DNA of 35,043 bases from the IMG/VR virus record IMGVR_UViG_3300021961_000014, positions 1 to 35,043 of that record. One strand, written 5' to 3'. Source of the DNA: a virus. A model generated the notes under the pieces. The model saw nothing but the letters and a program-made list of their open reading frames with translations. It had not been told where the DNA came from and did not search any database. Of this stretch, positions 14,796 through 35,043 are shown piece after piece (the first letter of the stretch is position 1; each line of letters begins with the position of its first letter). The position numbers and the translations under genes are program-made.

Positions 14796-14823
14796 TGGGC
14801 TCGAATCCCCCCGATGGGCCCCA
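14796..14823 (+). other. Possible tRNA 3'-end remnant
   Basis: GGGCTCGAATCCCCCC followed by GATGGGCCCCA resembles the T arm (loop CTCGAAT, with C instead of the usual first T) and acceptor end of a tRNA, with no tRNA body upstream. Phage attachment cores are often such 3' ends, but no integrase is present. Weak call. Confidence 0.25.
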
Positions 14824-14842
14824 TTATTTAGCCTAAAAATCT

Positions 14843-15130: not shown

Positions 15131-15189
15131 AACGATGTAGCTCAGTTGGTTAGAGCCCAGGCGCGGCGGTTCGAGTCCGCCCATCGTTA
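15131..15189 (+). tRNA. tRNA-like gene lacking the anticodon loop
   Basis: A 58-base tRNA-like element with a perfect 7-bp acceptor (AACGATG, 15131-15137, with CATCGTT, 15182-15188), an intact D arm (GCTC AGTTGGTTA GAGC, 15140-15156) and an intact T arm (GGCGG TTCGAGT CCGCC, 15165-15181). Between D and T arms only 8 bases remain (CCAGGCGC). CCAGG could be the 5' side of an anticodon stem, so the anticodon loop and 3' stem are missing. No CCA is encoded; the next base is A. It cannot decode a codon. It may be a pseudogene with a neat internal deletion, or a tRNA mimic. Confidence 0.6.
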
Positions 15190-16819: not shown

Positions 16820-16903
16820 TCACCTCCATGGAGGGCCTATTATTTTAAAAATAATACGCCCCAAAACATTCCCAATAATGCAACACCAAAAAATAAATCG
16901 CAT
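16820..16903 (-). CDS. 27-aa hydrophobic micropeptide
   Basis: The ATG at 16903 overlaps the stop of the preceding gene (TAATG). The 27-aa peptide MRFIFWCCIIGNVLGRIIFK plus seven residues is a single hydrophobic, positively charged helix able to insert in the membrane. Too short for a family call; could be a membrane micropeptide or an unused frame. Confidence 0.35.
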   Translation of the reverse strand: MRFIFWCCIIGNVLGRIIFKIIGPPWR

Positions 16904-17082
16904 TACCTGCGAGTCCCCTTCCCTAGTAGTTTATTAACAAAGACAACCGCCTCGCTAGAAGTGCATGCTGCGAGTTTTTCGCCTATAGCAAATCTAAAAA
17001 ATTCTTCGTCTTTTGGCTCTGCGATAATAGGAATAAACGTATCTAATATATTTTCTATTTCCATCGCGTTTAATTTGTTCAC
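16903..17082 (-). CDS. Hypothetical protein, first gene of the thyA operon (59 aa)
   Basis: A helical, acidic 59-aa product (MNKLNAMEIENILDTFIPII..., ending LLGKGTRR) with no known motif. I chose GTG 17082, 6 bases after GAG, because a longer frame to 17181 runs through the promoter at 17119-17147 and would not be transcribed from it. An in-frame ATG at 17064 is another option. Confidence 0.55.
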   Translation of the reverse strand: MNKLNAMEIENILDTFIPIIAEPKDEEFFRFAIGEKLAACTSSEAVVFVNKLLGKGTRR

Positions 17083-17118: not shown

Positions 17119-17147
17119 ATCATAATAATATATTATTGATAAGTCAA
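17119..17147 (-). promoter_or_regulatory. Promoter of the thyA operon
   Basis: TTGACT (17142-17147), a 17-bp spacer and TATGAT (17119-17124) on the minus strand. Unlike the other early promoters it has no TTTAC-N3-GTAAA palindrome. Confidence 0.6.
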
Positions 17148-17182
17148 CAACCTTTTTTATTTTGCACAAAACTTGGCACAAA

Positions 17183-17360
17183 AAATGTTTTTGAGGCTAA
17201 AACTTATTAACTTGTCCGTACCTTAGGGTACCCTAGGGTTTAATAAGGTACGGATTCGTCAACATGTTTTAGTATGTGCCATAATCCTTTTGTTATAATA
17301 TTGACAAATCAACTATATTTAGCCTCAAAAACTAAAGTTATACACAGGTTATCCACATGC
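17183..17360. other. Putative replication origin with nested inverted repeats and DnaA boxes
   Basis: No gene fits here. GTTTTTGAGGCTAAA (17187-17201) is repeated in perfect inversion at 17318-17332. Inside lies an 11-bp perfect inversion, TCCGTACCTTA (17215-17225) with TAAGGTACGGA (17244-17254), whose loop contains GGGTACCC and CCCTAGGG. Right after the outer repeat come two consensus DnaA boxes, TTATACACA (17338-17346) and TTATCCACA (17349-17357), two bases apart. AT-rich sequence lies between. The layout suits a DnaA-assisted origin; the position between divergent transcription units agrees. Confidence 0.65.
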
Positions 17361-17428
17361 ATAAACCTTGCTAAAAACGAGGTCTTTTCTGGGGTTTTTA
17401 TACCTGCCCGATAGGGGGTGGAGTTACA

Positions 17429-17468
17429 CACACACCACACCCCCCCCTAAAGGGGGGTGTGGGGTGTG
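17429..17468. other. Large GC-rich hairpin downstream of the DnaA boxes
   Basis: An 11-bp stem (17435-17445 with 17452-17462) with a 6-base loop is extended by 5 more pairs after one mismatch. One arm is C8-rich, the other G6 and G4. The plus strand then has further GGG runs up to about 17483, so a G-quadruplex is also possible. No T tract follows at once, so a replication or RNA structural role fits better than simple termination. Confidence 0.55.
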
Positions 17469-17530
17469 CCCCCGGTTGGGAGGGTTAAAATACCCCCAGA
17501 CCTTGGCCGTCGGTACTGTTGTTTTGGTTG

Positions 17531-17560
17531 TTGACAAAGTAAAGTCTCCCGGTTTATAAT
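17531..17560 (+). promoter_or_regulatory. Rightward early promoter with operator O5
   Basis: TTGACA (17531-17536) and TATAAT (17555-17560), both consensus, with an 18-bp spacer. TTGACAAAGTAAA (17531-17543) matches the operator with one change, the one that makes the -35 perfect. AGGAGG and the first small gene follow. Confidence 0.8.
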
Positions 17561-17593: not shown

Positions 17594-17767
17594 ATGAATA
17601 AAGAGAATTTAAAAAAGTATTTGGAATTTAGAGTTAAACGTGAATGTGATTTGTTGGGGAGAACAGACACGAATGAGTACGTTTTATCAATGACGCACGA
17701 TCAGAAGTTGGAAATAGCTCTCGATATTCTTGAATATGAAAAAATATCCGCAAAGATTGCGGGGTAA
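17594..17767 (+). CDS. Small hypothetical protein (57 aa)
   Basis: A 57-codon gene with AGGAGGG ahead of ATG 17594, first in the rightward block after the origin. The product is helical and charged (MNKENLKKYLEFRVKRECDL...), ending in a helix IALDILEYEKISAKIAG. No motif known. Strong promoter and ribosome site suggest high early expression, as for host-takeover proteins. Confidence 0.65.
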   Translation: MNKENLKKYLEFRVKRECDLLGRTDTNEYVLSMTHDQKLEIALDILEYEKISAKIAG

Positions 17768-17777
17768 GGATTTGAAA

Positions 17778-17903
17778 ATGTTTAAAATAAAAGTTACGCG
17801 GATTTCTACAGGGCAAGAAAAGATCATCGATGAGATATCGATTCAGGATATCTCGAATCTGGTTAATAAGTGCGATGGGTTGTTGGTTGAGTTTGTTTTG
17901 TAG
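17778..17903 (+). CDS. Small hypothetical protein (41 aa)
   Basis: A 41-codon gene starting 10 bp after the previous stop with AAGGA upstream. MFKIKVTRISTGQEKIIDEI is beta-hairpin-like, followed by an amphipathic helix and a final VEFVL strand. No family. Small size and position suggest an early accessory protein. Confidence 0.55.
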   Translation: MFKIKVTRISTGQEKIIDEISIQDISNLVNKCDGLLVEFVL

Positions 17904-18032
17904 CACGTCAAAAACCGCCGTAATTGAAGATATTTTTATTTAAGGTATCATTAGGCGGTATTGATTTATTTTTTGATTTAAGGGCGTTTTTAATGGGTGT
18001 TGATGTTTTAGAGTTGAAGGGTGATTTTCGAT

Positions 18033-18185
18033 ATGATTTTGAATTTTTTATTTTTGAGCTTTTTTTTGGTTGCGATTGCGTCGGTTATCCGGTCATCATC
18101 GGGAACAACTAGGCATATTTTTTTAAGAAAAAAGACCCACGAAAATATCTTGGCGGTGTCTATGGCGGGGGTTATGAGGAGATAA
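18033..18185 (+). CDS. Small membrane protein (50 aa)
   Basis: ATG 18033 encodes one N-terminal transmembrane helix (MILNFLFLSFFLVAIASVI) and a basic 30-residue tail. A competing frame (TTG 17924 or ATG 17992 to 18112) is Phe-rich and has no ribosome site; I prefer the 50-aa frame because its end is coupled to the next gene (GAGGAG at its stop serves the next ATG). Nothing else is seen in 17904-18032. Confidence 0.5.
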   Translation: MILNFLFLSFFLVAIASVIRSSSGTTRHIFLRKKTHENILAVSMAGVMRR

Positions 18186-18187
18186 TT

Positions 18188-18361
18188 ATGAGTATTTATG
18201 TTGGGTTCGCTTTGGTTGGTGTCGGGTTTTTATTTTTGGCGTTGATTTGTGGGGAGGCTGCTGGGGGTGGTATCCACGACGGGCTTGGGGCAGCTATAAT
18301 TGTGTTTATTTTAATTGCTTCAGGCGTTTTCAATTTTATTCGCGGGATTGATGAGTTATGA
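18188..18361 (+). CDS. Small two-helix membrane protein (57 aa)
   Basis: Two hydrophobic helices (about residues 4-21 and 33-50) separated by a Gly-rich loop with EAAGGGIHDG. GGAG lies 6-8 bases before ATG 18188, and the stop overlaps the RNA ligase start (ATGA). Together with the preceding gene it forms a pair of membrane proteins linked to an RNA ligase. Holin-like topology is possible but the location is early. Confidence 0.65.
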   Translation: MSIYVGFALVGVGFLFLALICGEAAGGGIHDGLGAAIIVFILIASGVFNFIRGIDEL

Positions 18362-18975
18362 AAAAAATAAAATCTTTGTTTGTTCGTGATTTTTCAAATA
18401 AAGAATGCCCGGCAAGGCCAGTTTTAAATGGTGATTTTAGGTGGGTTCTTGATGGTAAGGGTAAGGCGTATAGAAAAATGGATGGGATGGCTTGCATGGT
18501 TATGGATGGCAAGCTTTACAAGCGGTATGATTGCAAGCGTGGACGGACTGCTCCGGATGGATTTATCCCCTGCCAAGAACCTGATGAGGTTACGGGTCAT
18601 TGGCCTGGTTGGGTTGCTGTTGGCGACGGACCAGAAGACGCTCTCATGGTTAAGTGTTTTAATCGTAATCTTACGATAAAGAACGGTCTGGGGGATGTAA
18701 TAATGAAAAGCCCGTTAGATAATGGGACGTATGAGTTCGTGGGTCCAAAGGTCAACGGGAATAAAGAGGGATTGGATGATAATTTATTCATGAAACATAA
18801 CTTATTAATTAATTTGATAAGCAAAGACACGCTTGATTTGTCTGTTGTTGTTGAAAAATCATATTTGCAAATCTATTGTTTTTTAAAAAAATACAGAATT
18901 GAGGGGATTGTTTGGCATAGGAGAAACGGAGAGATGGTTAAAATAAAACGTTCAGATTTTGGTTTGGAGTGGTAA
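18358..18975 (+). CDS. RNA ligase-like nucleotidyltransferase (205 aa)
   Basis: Contains the ligase motif I with the adenylylated Lys: YRKMDGMACMV (K40-x-D-G43). MDGKLYKRYDCKRG follows, then a motif IV-like EGIVWH (182-187) and a motif V-like KIK (195-197). The order and spacing match short DUF5565-type RNA ligase-like proteins that seal broken RNA, classically tRNAs cut by host anticodon nucleases. No polynucleotide kinase is present. Its start is coupled to a membrane protein and its end overlaps or abuts the zinc-ribbon gene. Confidence 0.8.
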   Translation: MKKIKSLFVRDFSNKECPARPVLNGDFRWVLDGKGKAYRKMDGMACMVMDGKLYKRYDCKRGRTAPDGFIPCQEPDEVTGHWPGWVAVGDGPEDALMVKCFNRNLTIKNGLGDVIMKSPLDNGTYEFVGPKVNGNKEGLDDNLFMKHNLLINLISKDTLDLSVVVEKSYLQIYCFLKKYRIEGIVWHRRNGEMVKIKRSDFGLEW

Positions 18976-18977
18976 CT

Positions 18978-19352
18978 GTGGATAAAAAATGCTCAGAGTG
19001 CGGCGTTGAGATAGCGGGTAGAAAATACACTTGCTCGCTAGATTGTAAAAAAGTTAGGCGGAATCGTCTTGAATTTGAGAAGAGGCGTTTTCGAGAAGAT
19101 TTGATAAATATCGATGGTAAAAGTGTGTCTAAAATGGTTTTTTTTAACGGCGTAATATATGCACACTTGTACCCAAGGTATGACGTTATAAAGGGCGTTC
19201 TGGTGGTCACTTGCAGGGCCTCAAAAACAAAAGAGAGGGACATATCGACGGAAACTTTATTTACAATAAAAAAGAAAAAGGCTTGTTTGAAAAACATGTA
19301 TAAGAAAGCTGTAAGCCGACTTGTTGCCCACGGGTTTACGGAAATGATTTAG
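18978..19352 (+). CDS. Zinc-ribbon protein downstream of RNA ligase (124 aa)
   Basis: The N-terminus has two Cys pairs, KKCSECGVEI and YTCSLDCKKVRR, forming a likely zinc ribbon, followed by a basic helix (RRNRLEFEKRRFRED). The middle is beta-rich and the end Lys-rich and helical. I chose GTG 18978, 8 bases after GGAG; a GTG at 18969 is in frame too. Nucleic acid binding is likely. No nuclease motif (HNH) is evident. Confidence 0.62.
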   Translation: MDKKCSECGVEIAGRKYTCSLDCKKVRRNRLEFEKRRFREDLINIDGKSVSKMVFFNGVIYAHLYPRYDVIKGVLVVTCRASKTKERDISTETLFTIKKKKACLKNMYKKAVSRLVAHGFTEMI

Positions 19353-19390: not shown

Positions 19391-19446
19391 GGCGACCCTA
19401 TTTTTCTCCCCCCTAAAAGTCCAAACCCAAACTTTTGAGGGTCGCC
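19391..19446 (+). promoter_or_regulatory. Leader stem-loop before the ParB-methyltransferase gene
   Basis: A perfect 9-bp stem GGCGACCCT (19391-19399) with AGGGTCGCC (19438-19446) encloses a smaller AAAAG/CTTTT pairing. An A tract, not a T tract, follows, so it is not a normal terminator. It lies between the promoter and the preferred TTG start at 19474, so it could control translation or RNA stability of the late transcript. Confidence 0.5.
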
Positions 19447-19473
19447 AAAAAAATCAACGAGGAAACAACGAAA

Positions 19474-20823
19474 TTGAAAATCGATTTTTTAAAAATATCT
19501 GACTTGGTTCCTGCTGAATACAATCCGAGAAAATTGAGTAAGAAGCAGGCCTCAGAAATAGAGGCTAGCTTGCTTGAGTTTGGATTCGTTGATCCCGTTA
19601 TAGTCAATAAAAACCCAGATCGTCTGAATGTGATCGTTGGTGGCCATCAGCGCGTAAAAGTTTGGGGGTCTATGGGGTATGATACAGTTCCGGTTTTTTT
19701 AGTTGATCTTTCACCTGAGAAAGAAAAAGAACTTAACGTAAGGTTAAATAAAAATACCGGCGAGTGGGATTTTGATTTGCTGCTGTCTGAGTTTGACAAA
19801 ACAGATCTAAATGATTGGGGCTTTGAGGATTCGGATTTTCCGGATATAGATGTGTTGAAACCTGATGAGACGACCGGAGACGATGAAGTCGGCGGGAAGG
19901 GTTCATTGTCTGATAGGTTTTTGATTCCACCTTTCTCAGTCTTTAACGCCCGCGAGGGATGGTGGCAGAATAGAAAAAAAGCATGGGTTAAAATTGGAAT
20001 AAAAAGCGAGAAAGGGCGCGACATCAACCCGACAAGCGTTTCAAAGGACGCCCCCGCATACATGGCCGGACGGGGCAATAATGACGGCGGGTCAATTTTC
20101 GACCCTGTACTGTGTGAGATTGCATACCGTTGGTTCTCACCACCTGGCGGTCTCATATTAGACCCGTTTGCGGGAGGAAGCGTTCGAGGTATTGTGGCTA
20201 GCAAGTTGGGCCGTCAGTATGTCGGCCATGAATTGCGCGATGAGCAGGTTTTCGCGAACAGGGAACAGGCGTTGGAAATATGCACGGATAAGGATCCTCA
20301 CCCTGTGTGGATAATTGGGGACAGTCGTGGGATAGATAAGACATGCGCTGACGTTGATGCTGATTTTATTTTTTCTTGCCCCCCCTATGCAGATCTTGAG
20401 GTTTACAGCGATGATCCGGACGACTTGAGCACTTTGGGCTACAGCGAATTCAGAGAAGCTTATTTTGAGATAATAAAGAAATCATGTGCCAGGTTAAAGG
20501 ATAACAGTTTTGCCTGTTTTGTTGTTGGTGAGGTACGTGACAAAAATGGAAACTATTATAATTTCGTAGGAGATACGGTTTCTGCGTTTATGGCCGCCGG
20601 TTTGAATTTCTATAATGAGGCAATACTTGTTACTTGTGCTGGAACGTTACCGATAAGGGTAGGACGACAATTTAGTTCAGGTAGAAAACTTGGTAAAACT
20701 CATCAAAATATACTACTTTTCGTTAAGGGTGATGGTAAAGAGGCCGCCATGAATTGCGGAATGGTAGAGGTTCATGAATCTGTGTTTGAAGGACTAGAGG
20801 GAGTACCTGCTGATGAGGGCTAA
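19474..20823 (+). CDS. ParB-like / DNA methyltransferase fusion (449 aa)
   Basis: The N-terminal ~105 residues are a ParB/Srx-type domain: ISDLVPAEYNPRKLSK, FGFVDPVIVN and IVGGHQRVKVWG (GGHQR at 56-60). The C-terminal part is an N4/N6 methyltransferase with motif I LDPFAGGSVRG (229-239) and catalytic SCPPYADL (301-308). The fusion is common in phages and mobile elements. I chose TTG 19474 (GAGG 11 bases upstream) over TTG 19435, which falls within the leader stem. It is directly before the terminase genes, so it may mark or protect phage DNA before packaging. Confidence 0.82.
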   Translation: MKIDFLKISDLVPAEYNPRKLSKKQASEIEASLLEFGFVDPVIVNKNPDRLNVIVGGHQRVKVWGSMGYDTVPVFLVDLSPEKEKELNVRLNKNTGEWDFDLLLSEFDKTDLNDWGFEDSDFPDIDVLKPDETTGDDEVGGKGSLSDRFLIPPFSVFNAREGWWQNRKKAWVKIGIKSEKGRDINPTSVSKDAPAYMAGRGNNDGGSIFDPVLCEIAYRWFSPPGGLILDPFAGGSVRGIVASKLGRQYVGHELRDEQVFANREQALEICTDKDPHPVWIIGDSRGIDKTCADVDADFIFSCPPYADLEVYSDDPDDLSTLGYSEFREAYFEIIKKSCARLKDNSFACFVVGEVRDKNGNYYNFVGDTVSAFMAAGLNFYNEAILVTCAGTLPIRVGRQFSSGRKLGKTHQNILLFVKGDGKEAAMNCGMVEVHESVFEGLEGVPADEG

Positions 20824-34448: not shown

Positions 34449-35043
34449 AATCGTCGAGATAATCTATAAGCTGATCGACAAGGTAACTCCTGAGGCAAAA
34501 AAAATAAAAGCGTCGATAGAGTCTATCGATAAATCGTCCGATGATGCAGGCGAGCAGCTAGAAAAATTACAGAATAAACAAAAATCACTTTGGAAATCTG
34601 TTGCTATAGAGGCCGTAGCCGCATCTGCTCTAATCACTGCCGGAATGGCCAAAGTCGGGAAATCCGCAATATCGGCGGCTATCGATTACGAGCAACAGGA
34701 AATGGCATTCACTTCTATGCTTGGCAGCCGTTTAAGGGCTCAGGAATTGATTGCAGATATTCAACGAGTGTCCGCGGAAACGCCATTTGAGCAAAGGGAC
34801 CTTATTGAGTATTCAAAAAAATTGATAGCCGTTGGAGTTGCAGCTTCTGACGTAATCCCAACTATGACAATGTTGGGCGATGTCGCATCGGCTTTGGGGA
34901 CAGAAAAACTTCCTCAGATCGTCCGAGGGTATTCTGACATTCAGGCCGCCGGGCGGGCTATGGGTGGAGATCTTAAGCAGATAAGAGATGCAACCGTTCC
35001 GATCGATCAGTTTTTGTCTAAAGTTTTGGGGGTGTCTGTAACT
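34438..35043 (+). CDS. Tail tape measure protein, N-terminal part (continues at the left end)
   Basis: Begins at ATG 34438 within the chaperone gene, with AGAGG upstream. The first 202 residues are present. They include a Lys/Glu helix (VTPEAKKIKASIESIDKSSD), a hydrophobic stretch (IEAVAASALITAGMAKVG), and SMLGSRLRAQELIADIQRVS, AETPFEQRDLIEY, typical of the first domain of tape measure proteins. The frame is continuous with base 2 of the window, giving 737 aa in all. Confidence 0.9.
   Translation, partial: MSNKIVEIIYKLIDKVTPEAKKIKASIESIDKSSDDAGEQLEKLQNKQKSLWKSVAIEAVAASALITAGMAKVGKSAISAAIDYEQQEMAFTSMLGSRLRAQELIADIQRVSAETPFEQRDLIEYSKKLIAVGVAASDVIPTMTMLGDVASALGTEKLPQIVRGYSDIQAAGRAMGGDLKQIRDATVPIDQFLSKVLGVSVT
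34917..35043. repeat. 127-bp terminal direct repeat, right copy
   Basis: Identical to bases 1-127; see the left copy. It shows that the sequence is circular or circularly permuted with a unit length of 34,916 bp. Confidence 0.93.

What the first reader, a model, noticed from the sequence alone, without database searches (positions are those of the whole stretch)
17594..19352. Early cassette: small soluble and membrane proteins, RNA ligase and zinc ribbon
Under the strongest operator-controlled promoter lie two small soluble proteins, two small membrane proteins, an RNA ligase-like enzyme and a zinc-ribbon protein, with the three last junctions coupled. A membrane pair coupled to an RNA ligase is not a standard phage module that I know. 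It might repair RNA after host defence cleavage, with the membrane proteins as sensors or exclusion factors. It is the best candidate for an undescribed system here.
Basis: inference. Interest (0 to 1): 0.7.

Follow-up and report, generated by a model that had tools for sequence, protein, structure and literature searches.

The report
Stand-alone phage RLIG1-type RNA ligase
The interesting gene is a phage version of the human RNA-mending enzyme RLIG1, probably used to repair RNA cut by bacterial defences; the small membrane proteins beside it are local passengers and do not form a new system with it.

Summary
The six ORFs, the strong promoter and the three tight junctions are real. The 205-aa protein is an RLIG1-family (PF17720) 5'-3' RNA ligase: PHROG 'RNA ligase' E 2e-50, confident model matching Yasminevirus RLIG1 crystals, all catalytic motifs invariant in 44 relatives. 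This family is known in phages, and published work already shows that viral and bacterial homologues seal tRNA halves.

The 'membrane pair plus ligase' is not a conserved system. The closest sister phage (ligase 83% identical) lacks the 57-aa membrane gene. None of the small partners occurs at the other ~140 ligase loci examined, and a small membrane gene upstream of the ligase is no commoner than background.

The phage (complete; 127-bp terminal repeat) has no T4-type end-healing kinase, and only 1 of 42 RLIG1-bearing phage records has one. The proposed PrrC/RloC targets are therefore unlikely. Breaks with 5'-phosphate/3'-OH ends, as left by PARIS AriB or VapC-type nucleases, fit better.

Verdict: new member of a known kind.

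Side finds may be worth more: an anticodon-armless tRNA-like RNA in this phage (28 distinct examples in viral contigs) and an orphan abiF antitoxin RNA in the sister phage.

The parts
17531..17560 (+). sigma-70-type promoter TTGACA-18-TATAAT heading the rightward gene block
   Evidence: 12/12 consensus match; -35 and -10 identical in sister contig L002
17594..17767 (+). 57-aa small soluble protein, no known family
   Evidence: ORF with AGGAGG upstream; no relative found; replaced by other genes in L002
17778..17903 (+). 41-aa small soluble protein
   Evidence: shared only with L002, in a ~97-99% identical block; 3 synonymous, 1 non-synonymous change
18021..18185 (+). 54-aa (GTG) or 50-aa (ATG 18033) protein with one N-terminal hydrophobic segment
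   Evidence: max hydropathy 2.56; found only in the sister contig
18188..18361 (+). 57-aa very hydrophobic protein, probably two transmembrane segments; absent from the sister phage
   Evidence: max hydropathy 2.57; gene-precise indel versus L002; no relatives
18358..18975 (+). RLIG1-family ATP-dependent 5'-3' RNA ligase, catalytic Lys40 (KMDG)
   Evidence: Pfam RLIG1 9e-10; PHROG 14301 1.9e-50; PDB 9c6l 2e-12; model pLDDT 89.9 and Foldseek 8.5e-13; motifs invariant
18969..19352 (+). 127-aa (GTG 18969) or 124-aa (GTG 18978) putative zinc-ribbon protein, CxxC...CxxxC
   Evidence: 91% identical in sister, dN/dS 0.10; no family, no relatives elsewhere
19435..20823 (+). ParB-domain/DNA methyltransferase fusion, next gene downstream, followed by terminase genes
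   Evidence: PHROG 498 and 620, Pfam N6_N4_Mtase and ParB_N
17185..17475 (.). origin-like region: tandem DnaA boxes, nested inverted repeats, C/G-run hairpin

Best explanation
The functional core of the finding is one gene: a small stand-alone RLIG1-family RNA ligase. It takes AMP from ATP onto Lys40, transfers it to a 5'-phosphate RNA end, and seals that end to a 3'-OH. Its most likely job is to rejoin host tRNA (or other RNA) nicked during infection by a metal-dependent defence or toxin nuclease that leaves 5'-phosphate/3'-OH ends, such as the PARIS effector AriB or VapC/PIN-type toxins, without any separate kinase-phosphatase. The four small proteins upstream and the zinc-ribbon protein downstream are accessory genes sharing a variable slot beside the origin. 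The zinc protein may be a regulator or nucleic-acid-binding partner, but the membrane proteins are not required partners. Shown: family, predicted fold, catalytic residues, no detectable Pnkp-type kinase, no conserved partners. Inferred: activity of this protein, tRNA as substrate, and anti-defence role.
For: Family and fold. Motif I K40/D42/G43, Ia R56, III E126, IIIa H147, IV E182, V K195 invariant in 44 phage and bacterial relatives, matching the residues mutated in the solved enzyme (PMC11494293). In that paper several viral and bacterial homologues (a phage one was cloned) seal tRNA-Lys anticodon-loop halves with 5'-P/3'-OH ends, and an anti-immunity role is predicted. Purifying selection, dN/dS 0.20. 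Lone travel: cassette partners absent from the other RLIG1 loci examined; among 107 immediate neighbours no family is seen more than twice. The ligase tree interleaves viruses and cells, at least 12 label changes forced. No Pnkp-type kinase over cut-off in this complete genome and in only 1 of 42 RLIG1 phage records, while T4 Pnkp scores 83 bits in the same test. AriB leaves a 3'-OH (shown) and a 5'-phosphate (expected) on tRNA-Lys (PMC12409363). Some RLIG1 loci sit beside tRNA genes, RtcB or Ro60/TROVE, and bacterial DUF5565 neighbourhoods are RNA- and tRNA-rich (PMC10364804).
Against: No experiment on this protein. The host is unknown, so no PARIS or VapC system can be shown in it. A kinase too divergent for PF13671, or a host kinase, could prepare ends. 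The PNK3P phosphatase model is a weak detector (18 bits on T4, below its cut-off). IMG/VR records may be fragments. The ligase of this pair of phages has extra segments relative to most relatives and a long branch, so its substrate may differ.
Confidence: 0.62

Rival explanations
1. T4-like healing and sealing: the ligase repairs PrrC-type breaks, with end-healing done by an unrecognised phage protein or by host enzymes.
For: T4 Rnl1 plus Pnkp is the classical precedent (PMC11494293); in jumbo phages ATP-grasp ligases usually occur with end-healing enzymes (PMC7824862).
Against: No AAA_33 kinase over cut-off in this complete genome and in 41 of 42 RLIG1 phage records, although the test finds T4 Pnkp easily. 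RloC removes a nucleotide, which simple sealing cannot restore.
Confidence: 0.12
2. A membrane-anchored RNA-repair or sensing system: the two membrane proteins recruit or regulate the ligase.
For: Tight coupling of both membrane genes and the ligase in the window; the 54-aa membrane gene is kept in the sister phage directly before the ligase.
Against: The 57-aa membrane gene is missing in the sister phage; neither gene is found elsewhere; small membrane genes upstream of ligases are at background level, 3/69 against 67/715. The 54-aa gene lies in a block ~97-99% identical between phages that otherwise differ by 11-20%, suggesting recent exchange.
Confidence: 0.06
3. The ligase serves phage RNA or DNA metabolism (for example joining RNA at replication, or processing a phage RNA such as the tRNA-like RNA at 15131) and not host tRNA repair.
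For: It lies in the gene block next to a likely origin; the same phage encodes a tRNA-like RNA.
Against: RLIG1 relatives occupy unrelated genomic settings; none of 34 other phage records with anticodon-armless tRNA-like RNAs carries RLIG1; the published assays found single-stranded RNA and tRNA halves as substrates.
Confidence: 0.15

Closest known systems
RLIG1 / C12orf29 family (PF17720, formerly DUF5565; PDB 9c6l, 9c6m)
   Same: Minimal nucleotidyltransferase domain without an RNA-binding domain, all motifs I-V, fold match E 8.5e-13, same family by Pfam.
   Different: 205 aa against 277 in the crystallised chain; insertions of its own relative to most phage relatives around residues 100-120 and 150-168; identity to the solved enzyme only about 22-27%.
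RLIG1-type ligases of mycobacteriophages (Collard, Paola), Burkholderia phage FLC9, Cellulophaga phage phi10:1, Nocardia phage NTR1 (PHROG 14301)
   Same: Full-length homologues, 30-43% identical, several annotated RNA ligase; active-site residues invariant.
   Different: None shares the neighbouring small genes; in Collard and Paola a 195-aa membrane protein lies upstream, without detected similarity to the small ones here.
T4 Rnl1-Pnkp tRNA repair system
   Same: ATP-dependent sealing of 5'-P/3'-OH RNA ends in a phage; probable counter-defence role.
   Different: No Pnkp detected, different ligase family, no RNA-binding domain.

Membership tests
RLIG1 RNA ligase family | Pfam PF17720 score over curated cut-off | tested here: met
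   38.4 bits against cut-off 25
RLIG1 RNA ligase family | KxDG lysine and motifs Ia, III, IIIa, IV, V | tested here: met
   K40, D42, G43, R56, E126, H147, E182, K195 invariant in 44 sequences (motif roles)
RLIG1 RNA ligase family | Minimal NTase fold like Yasminevirus RLIG1 | tested here: met
   AlphaFold2 pLDDT 89.9, Foldseek 9c6l E 8.5e-13, TM 0.75
RLIG1 RNA ligase family | Auto-adenylylation and 5'-P/3'-OH RNA sealing | not testable with these tools
   Shown for other family members (PMC11494293, PMC9931718)
T4 Rnl1-Pnkp tRNA repair system | Polynucleotide kinase-phosphatase partner | tested here: not met
   No AAA_33 over cut-off in the window; T4 positive control 83 bits
   57-aa gene absent even in the sister; partners absent at other ligase loci; 3/69 small hydrophobic neighbours against background 67/715
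Known anti-phage defence or superinfection-exclusion families | Match to PADLOC, PHROG or Pfam models | tested here: inconclusive
   No significant match for the small proteins; very short proteins are easily missed

The most novel reading that the evidence does not exclude
Phage RLIG1 ligases form a widespread class of one-protein RNA repair that works without end-healing and specifically undoes 5'-P/3'-OH tRNA cuts by metal-dependent defence nucleases such as PARIS AriB and VapC-type PIN toxins.
Probability: 0.33. Interest if true: 0.6.

Novelty: new member of a known kind. Interest (0 to 1): 0.3.

Why it matters
The ligase itself is a known kind, but the survey sharpens a testable idea: about 295 viral loci carry this family, and almost none of the 42 records tested has the kinase that T4 needs. 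That points to a different set of host nucleases from the classical PrrC case, notably PARIS and PIN-domain toxins. It also shows that the membrane proteins should not be pursued as part of a ligase system.

Tried and rejected
Membrane-ligase system: rejected on absence in the sister phage and at other ligase loci. Small proteins in PADLOC, NCBIfam, PHROGs and Pfam: only sub-threshold chance-like hits. Zinc-protein structure: model uninformative, pLDDT 50. Weak matches of the zinc protein to T4 gp59-N (E 9e-4, below cut-off) and Csx19 (E 0.005) set aside. A simple deletion between the TTATGA repeats as the origin of the 57-aa gene's absence: the sister junction has two extra bases (AATTATATGAAA), so not an exact repeat-mediated deletion. 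Link between RLIG1 and anticodon-armless tRNAs: no co-occurrence in 34 records (that search's named controls were also silent, but the same family model rings on the window protein). Host identification by terminase or capsid: only distant or no hits. Literature search for phages carrying anticodon-less tRNAs gave nothing decisive.

Full report
What is there. The window carries an exact 127-bp direct repeat at its two ends, and an open frame continues across the join where tape-measure matches begin, so it is a complete, circularly permuted phage genome of about 34.9 kb. Family searches place tail genes, lysis genes (spanin- and holin-like) and a primase-helicase on the + strand at 0-8.3 kb; a methyltransferase, helicase, SSB-like, Sak4-like and thymidylate synthase genes on the - strand at 8.8-16.5 kb; and a rightward block from 17.5 kb to the end with the cassette, a ParB-methyltransferase, terminase, portal, protease, capsid and tail genes. 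The cassette therefore heads the packaging/structural arm; nothing in the sequence shows that it is early.

The promoter is a 12/12 sigma-70 match. Between the divergent gene blocks lies an origin-like region: DnaA boxes at 17338 and 17349 (four in the window against 1.5 expected), the cumulative GC-skew minimum, and nested inverted repeats that fold far better than shuffles (z -5.7). In the sister contig the inner hairpin has different letters but stays 90% complementary, so its structure is conserved. The skew minimum is confounded by the change of coding strand at the same place.

The ligase. The 205-aa protein matches Pfam RLIG1 (9e-10, over cut-off), PHROG 14301 RNA ligase (1.9e-50) and the crystal structures of Yasminevirus RLIG1 (2e-12). 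An AlphaFold2 model from 44 relatives has mean pLDDT 89.9 and finds 9c6l/9c6m first by Foldseek, then Naegleria RNA ligase at much weaker E-values. Motifs I, Ia, III, IIIa, IV and V are invariant across those 44 sequences. About 295 viral and 160 bacterial loci encoding relatives were matched, of which 80 each were kept. The tree interleaves viral and cellular sequences with at least 12 forced changes. The family is therefore known and mobile. Published work cloned several viral and bacterial homologues, including one called 'C. phage RLIG1' (probably the Cellulophaga phage phi10:1 protein, my reading of the abbreviation), reported that several homologues sealed tRNA-Lys halves, and predicted an anti-immunity role for viral copies (PMC11494293).

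The neighbours. The closest relative, contig L002 (ligase 83% identical), is colinear, but the 57-aa membrane gene is missing: the 54-aa gene's stop is followed after four bases by the ligase start, which has its own AGGAGGT. In the window the matching Shine-Dalgarno site now serves the 57-aa gene, and the ligase start overlaps that gene as ATGA. The promoter-proximal gene is also different: L002 has there a gene that the window carries on the other side of the origin, on the opposite strand. A block from 17797 to 18107 is about 99% identical while flanks are 80-89%, indicating recent exchange. None of the small genes is found at the other ligase loci or, for the four proteins tested, in GenBank phages. 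Small hydrophobic proteins directly precede the ligase in 3 of 69 viral loci, including this phage and its sister, against 67 of 715 small ORFs in the background. Among 107 immediate neighbours of viral RLIG1 ligases no family occurs more than twice; single neighbours include RtcB and a TROVE/Ro60 protein, and 8 of 58 loci have tRNA genes. The ligase travels alone. The ORF caller behind searches was a simple one of mine, so very small partners could be missed there.

Mechanism. RLIG1 enzymes need 5'-phosphate and 3'-OH ends; PrrC leaves ends that Pnkp must heal first. This phage has no AAA_33 kinase over cut-off, and only one of 42 RLIG1-bearing phage records does, although T4 Pnkp is found at 83 bits. 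The PNK3P phosphatase model is a weaker test (T4 itself 18 bits, under cut-off) and gave 0 of 42 over cut-off. I therefore prefer nucleases whose products are directly sealable: AriB of PARIS cuts tRNA-Lys leaving 3'-OH (shown) and 5'-P (expected) ends (PMC12409363), and VapC PIN-domain toxins are metal-dependent and cut the anticodon loop of initiator tRNA (PMC5408214; their 5'-P/3'-OH products are from my general knowledge). This is an inference; the host and its defences are unknown.

Side finds. Between the Sak4-like and thymidylate synthase genes the window encodes a 59-nt RNA scoring 45.6 bits as tRNA in Rfam: acceptor, D and T stems are fully paired, but the anticodon arm is replaced by eight bases. 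ARAGORN misses it. A pattern scan found 34 more such contigs; the 28 distinct sequences (window included) keep 92% of acceptor and outer T-stem pairs with 49 pair types, against 50% in shuffles. The pattern fixes the D arm and inner T arm, so only the acceptor and outer T pairs are independent evidence, and recent descent from intact tRNAs would also give covariation. In the sister phage the same interval holds an abiF RNA (RF03085, 41.6 bits) followed by a T-run, with no Abi_2 gene in the contig (the contig is a 14.4-kb fragment). A C. difficile prophage abiF-motif RNA neutralises its toxin in trans (PMC12373285), so an orphan copy in a phage could be a counter-defence RNA. None of the 34 other records with armless tRNA-like RNAs carries RLIG1.

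Verdict. The RNA ligase is a good new member of a known family with a sharper testable target; the membrane-ligase system is not supported.

Noticed in passing
window 15131-15189 (+); loci L177-L210: tRNA-like RNA lacking the anticodon arm (Rfam tRNA 45.6 bits; acceptor, D and T stems intact, 8 nt in place of the arm, missed by ARAGORN). A pattern scan finds 34 more viral contigs; 28 distinct sequences keep 92% of acceptor/outer T-stem pairs with 49 pair types against 50% in shuffles; mostly without encoded CCA, and 9 of 28 carry CAA there. Possibly an unrecognised class of phage RNA.
   Followed up: partly
L002 4299-4336 (contig IMGVR_UViG_3300007234_000291): Orphan abiF RNA (RF03085, 41.6 bits) with a following T-run in the sister phage, in the interval where the window has the tRNA-like RNA; no Abi_2 toxin gene in the contig. 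Could neutralise a host AbiF toxin in trans.
   Followed up: partly
window 17185-17475: Origin-like region: tandem DnaA boxes, GC-skew minimum, nested inverted repeats; inner hairpin arms differ in the sister phage but remain complementary; C/G-run hairpin 17429-17468 unchanged.
   Followed up: partly
window 16903-17079 (-) versus L002 7150-7332 (+): The same small gene (KLNAMEIENI...) lies on opposite sides of the origin, in opposite orientation, in the two sister phages; in L002 it is the first gene under the strong rightward promoter.
   Followed up: partly
window 17119-17152 (-) and 17526-17560 (+): The two divergent promoters share an exact GGTTGTTGAC element over the -35 region, a candidate shared regulatory site.
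   Followed up: no
L127-L167 (Chryseobacterium and Flavobacterium chromosomes): Bacterial RLIG1 homologues sit in recurring chromosomal clusters that, judged by sequence look only, include a second Rnl2-like ligase, a metallophosphoesterase, an MBL-fold protein and a band-7-like protein; an RNA-repair neighbourhood in line with the published ProFaNA analysis.
   Followed up: no
window 14797-14825 (+): A T-arm-like remnant (GTGGGCTCGAATCCC...) upstream of the tRNA-like RNA, perhaps a decayed tRNA.
   Followed up: no
window ends 1-127 and 34917-35043: Exact 127-bp terminal direct repeat: the record is a complete circularly permuted genome; an open frame runs across the join.
   Followed up: yes
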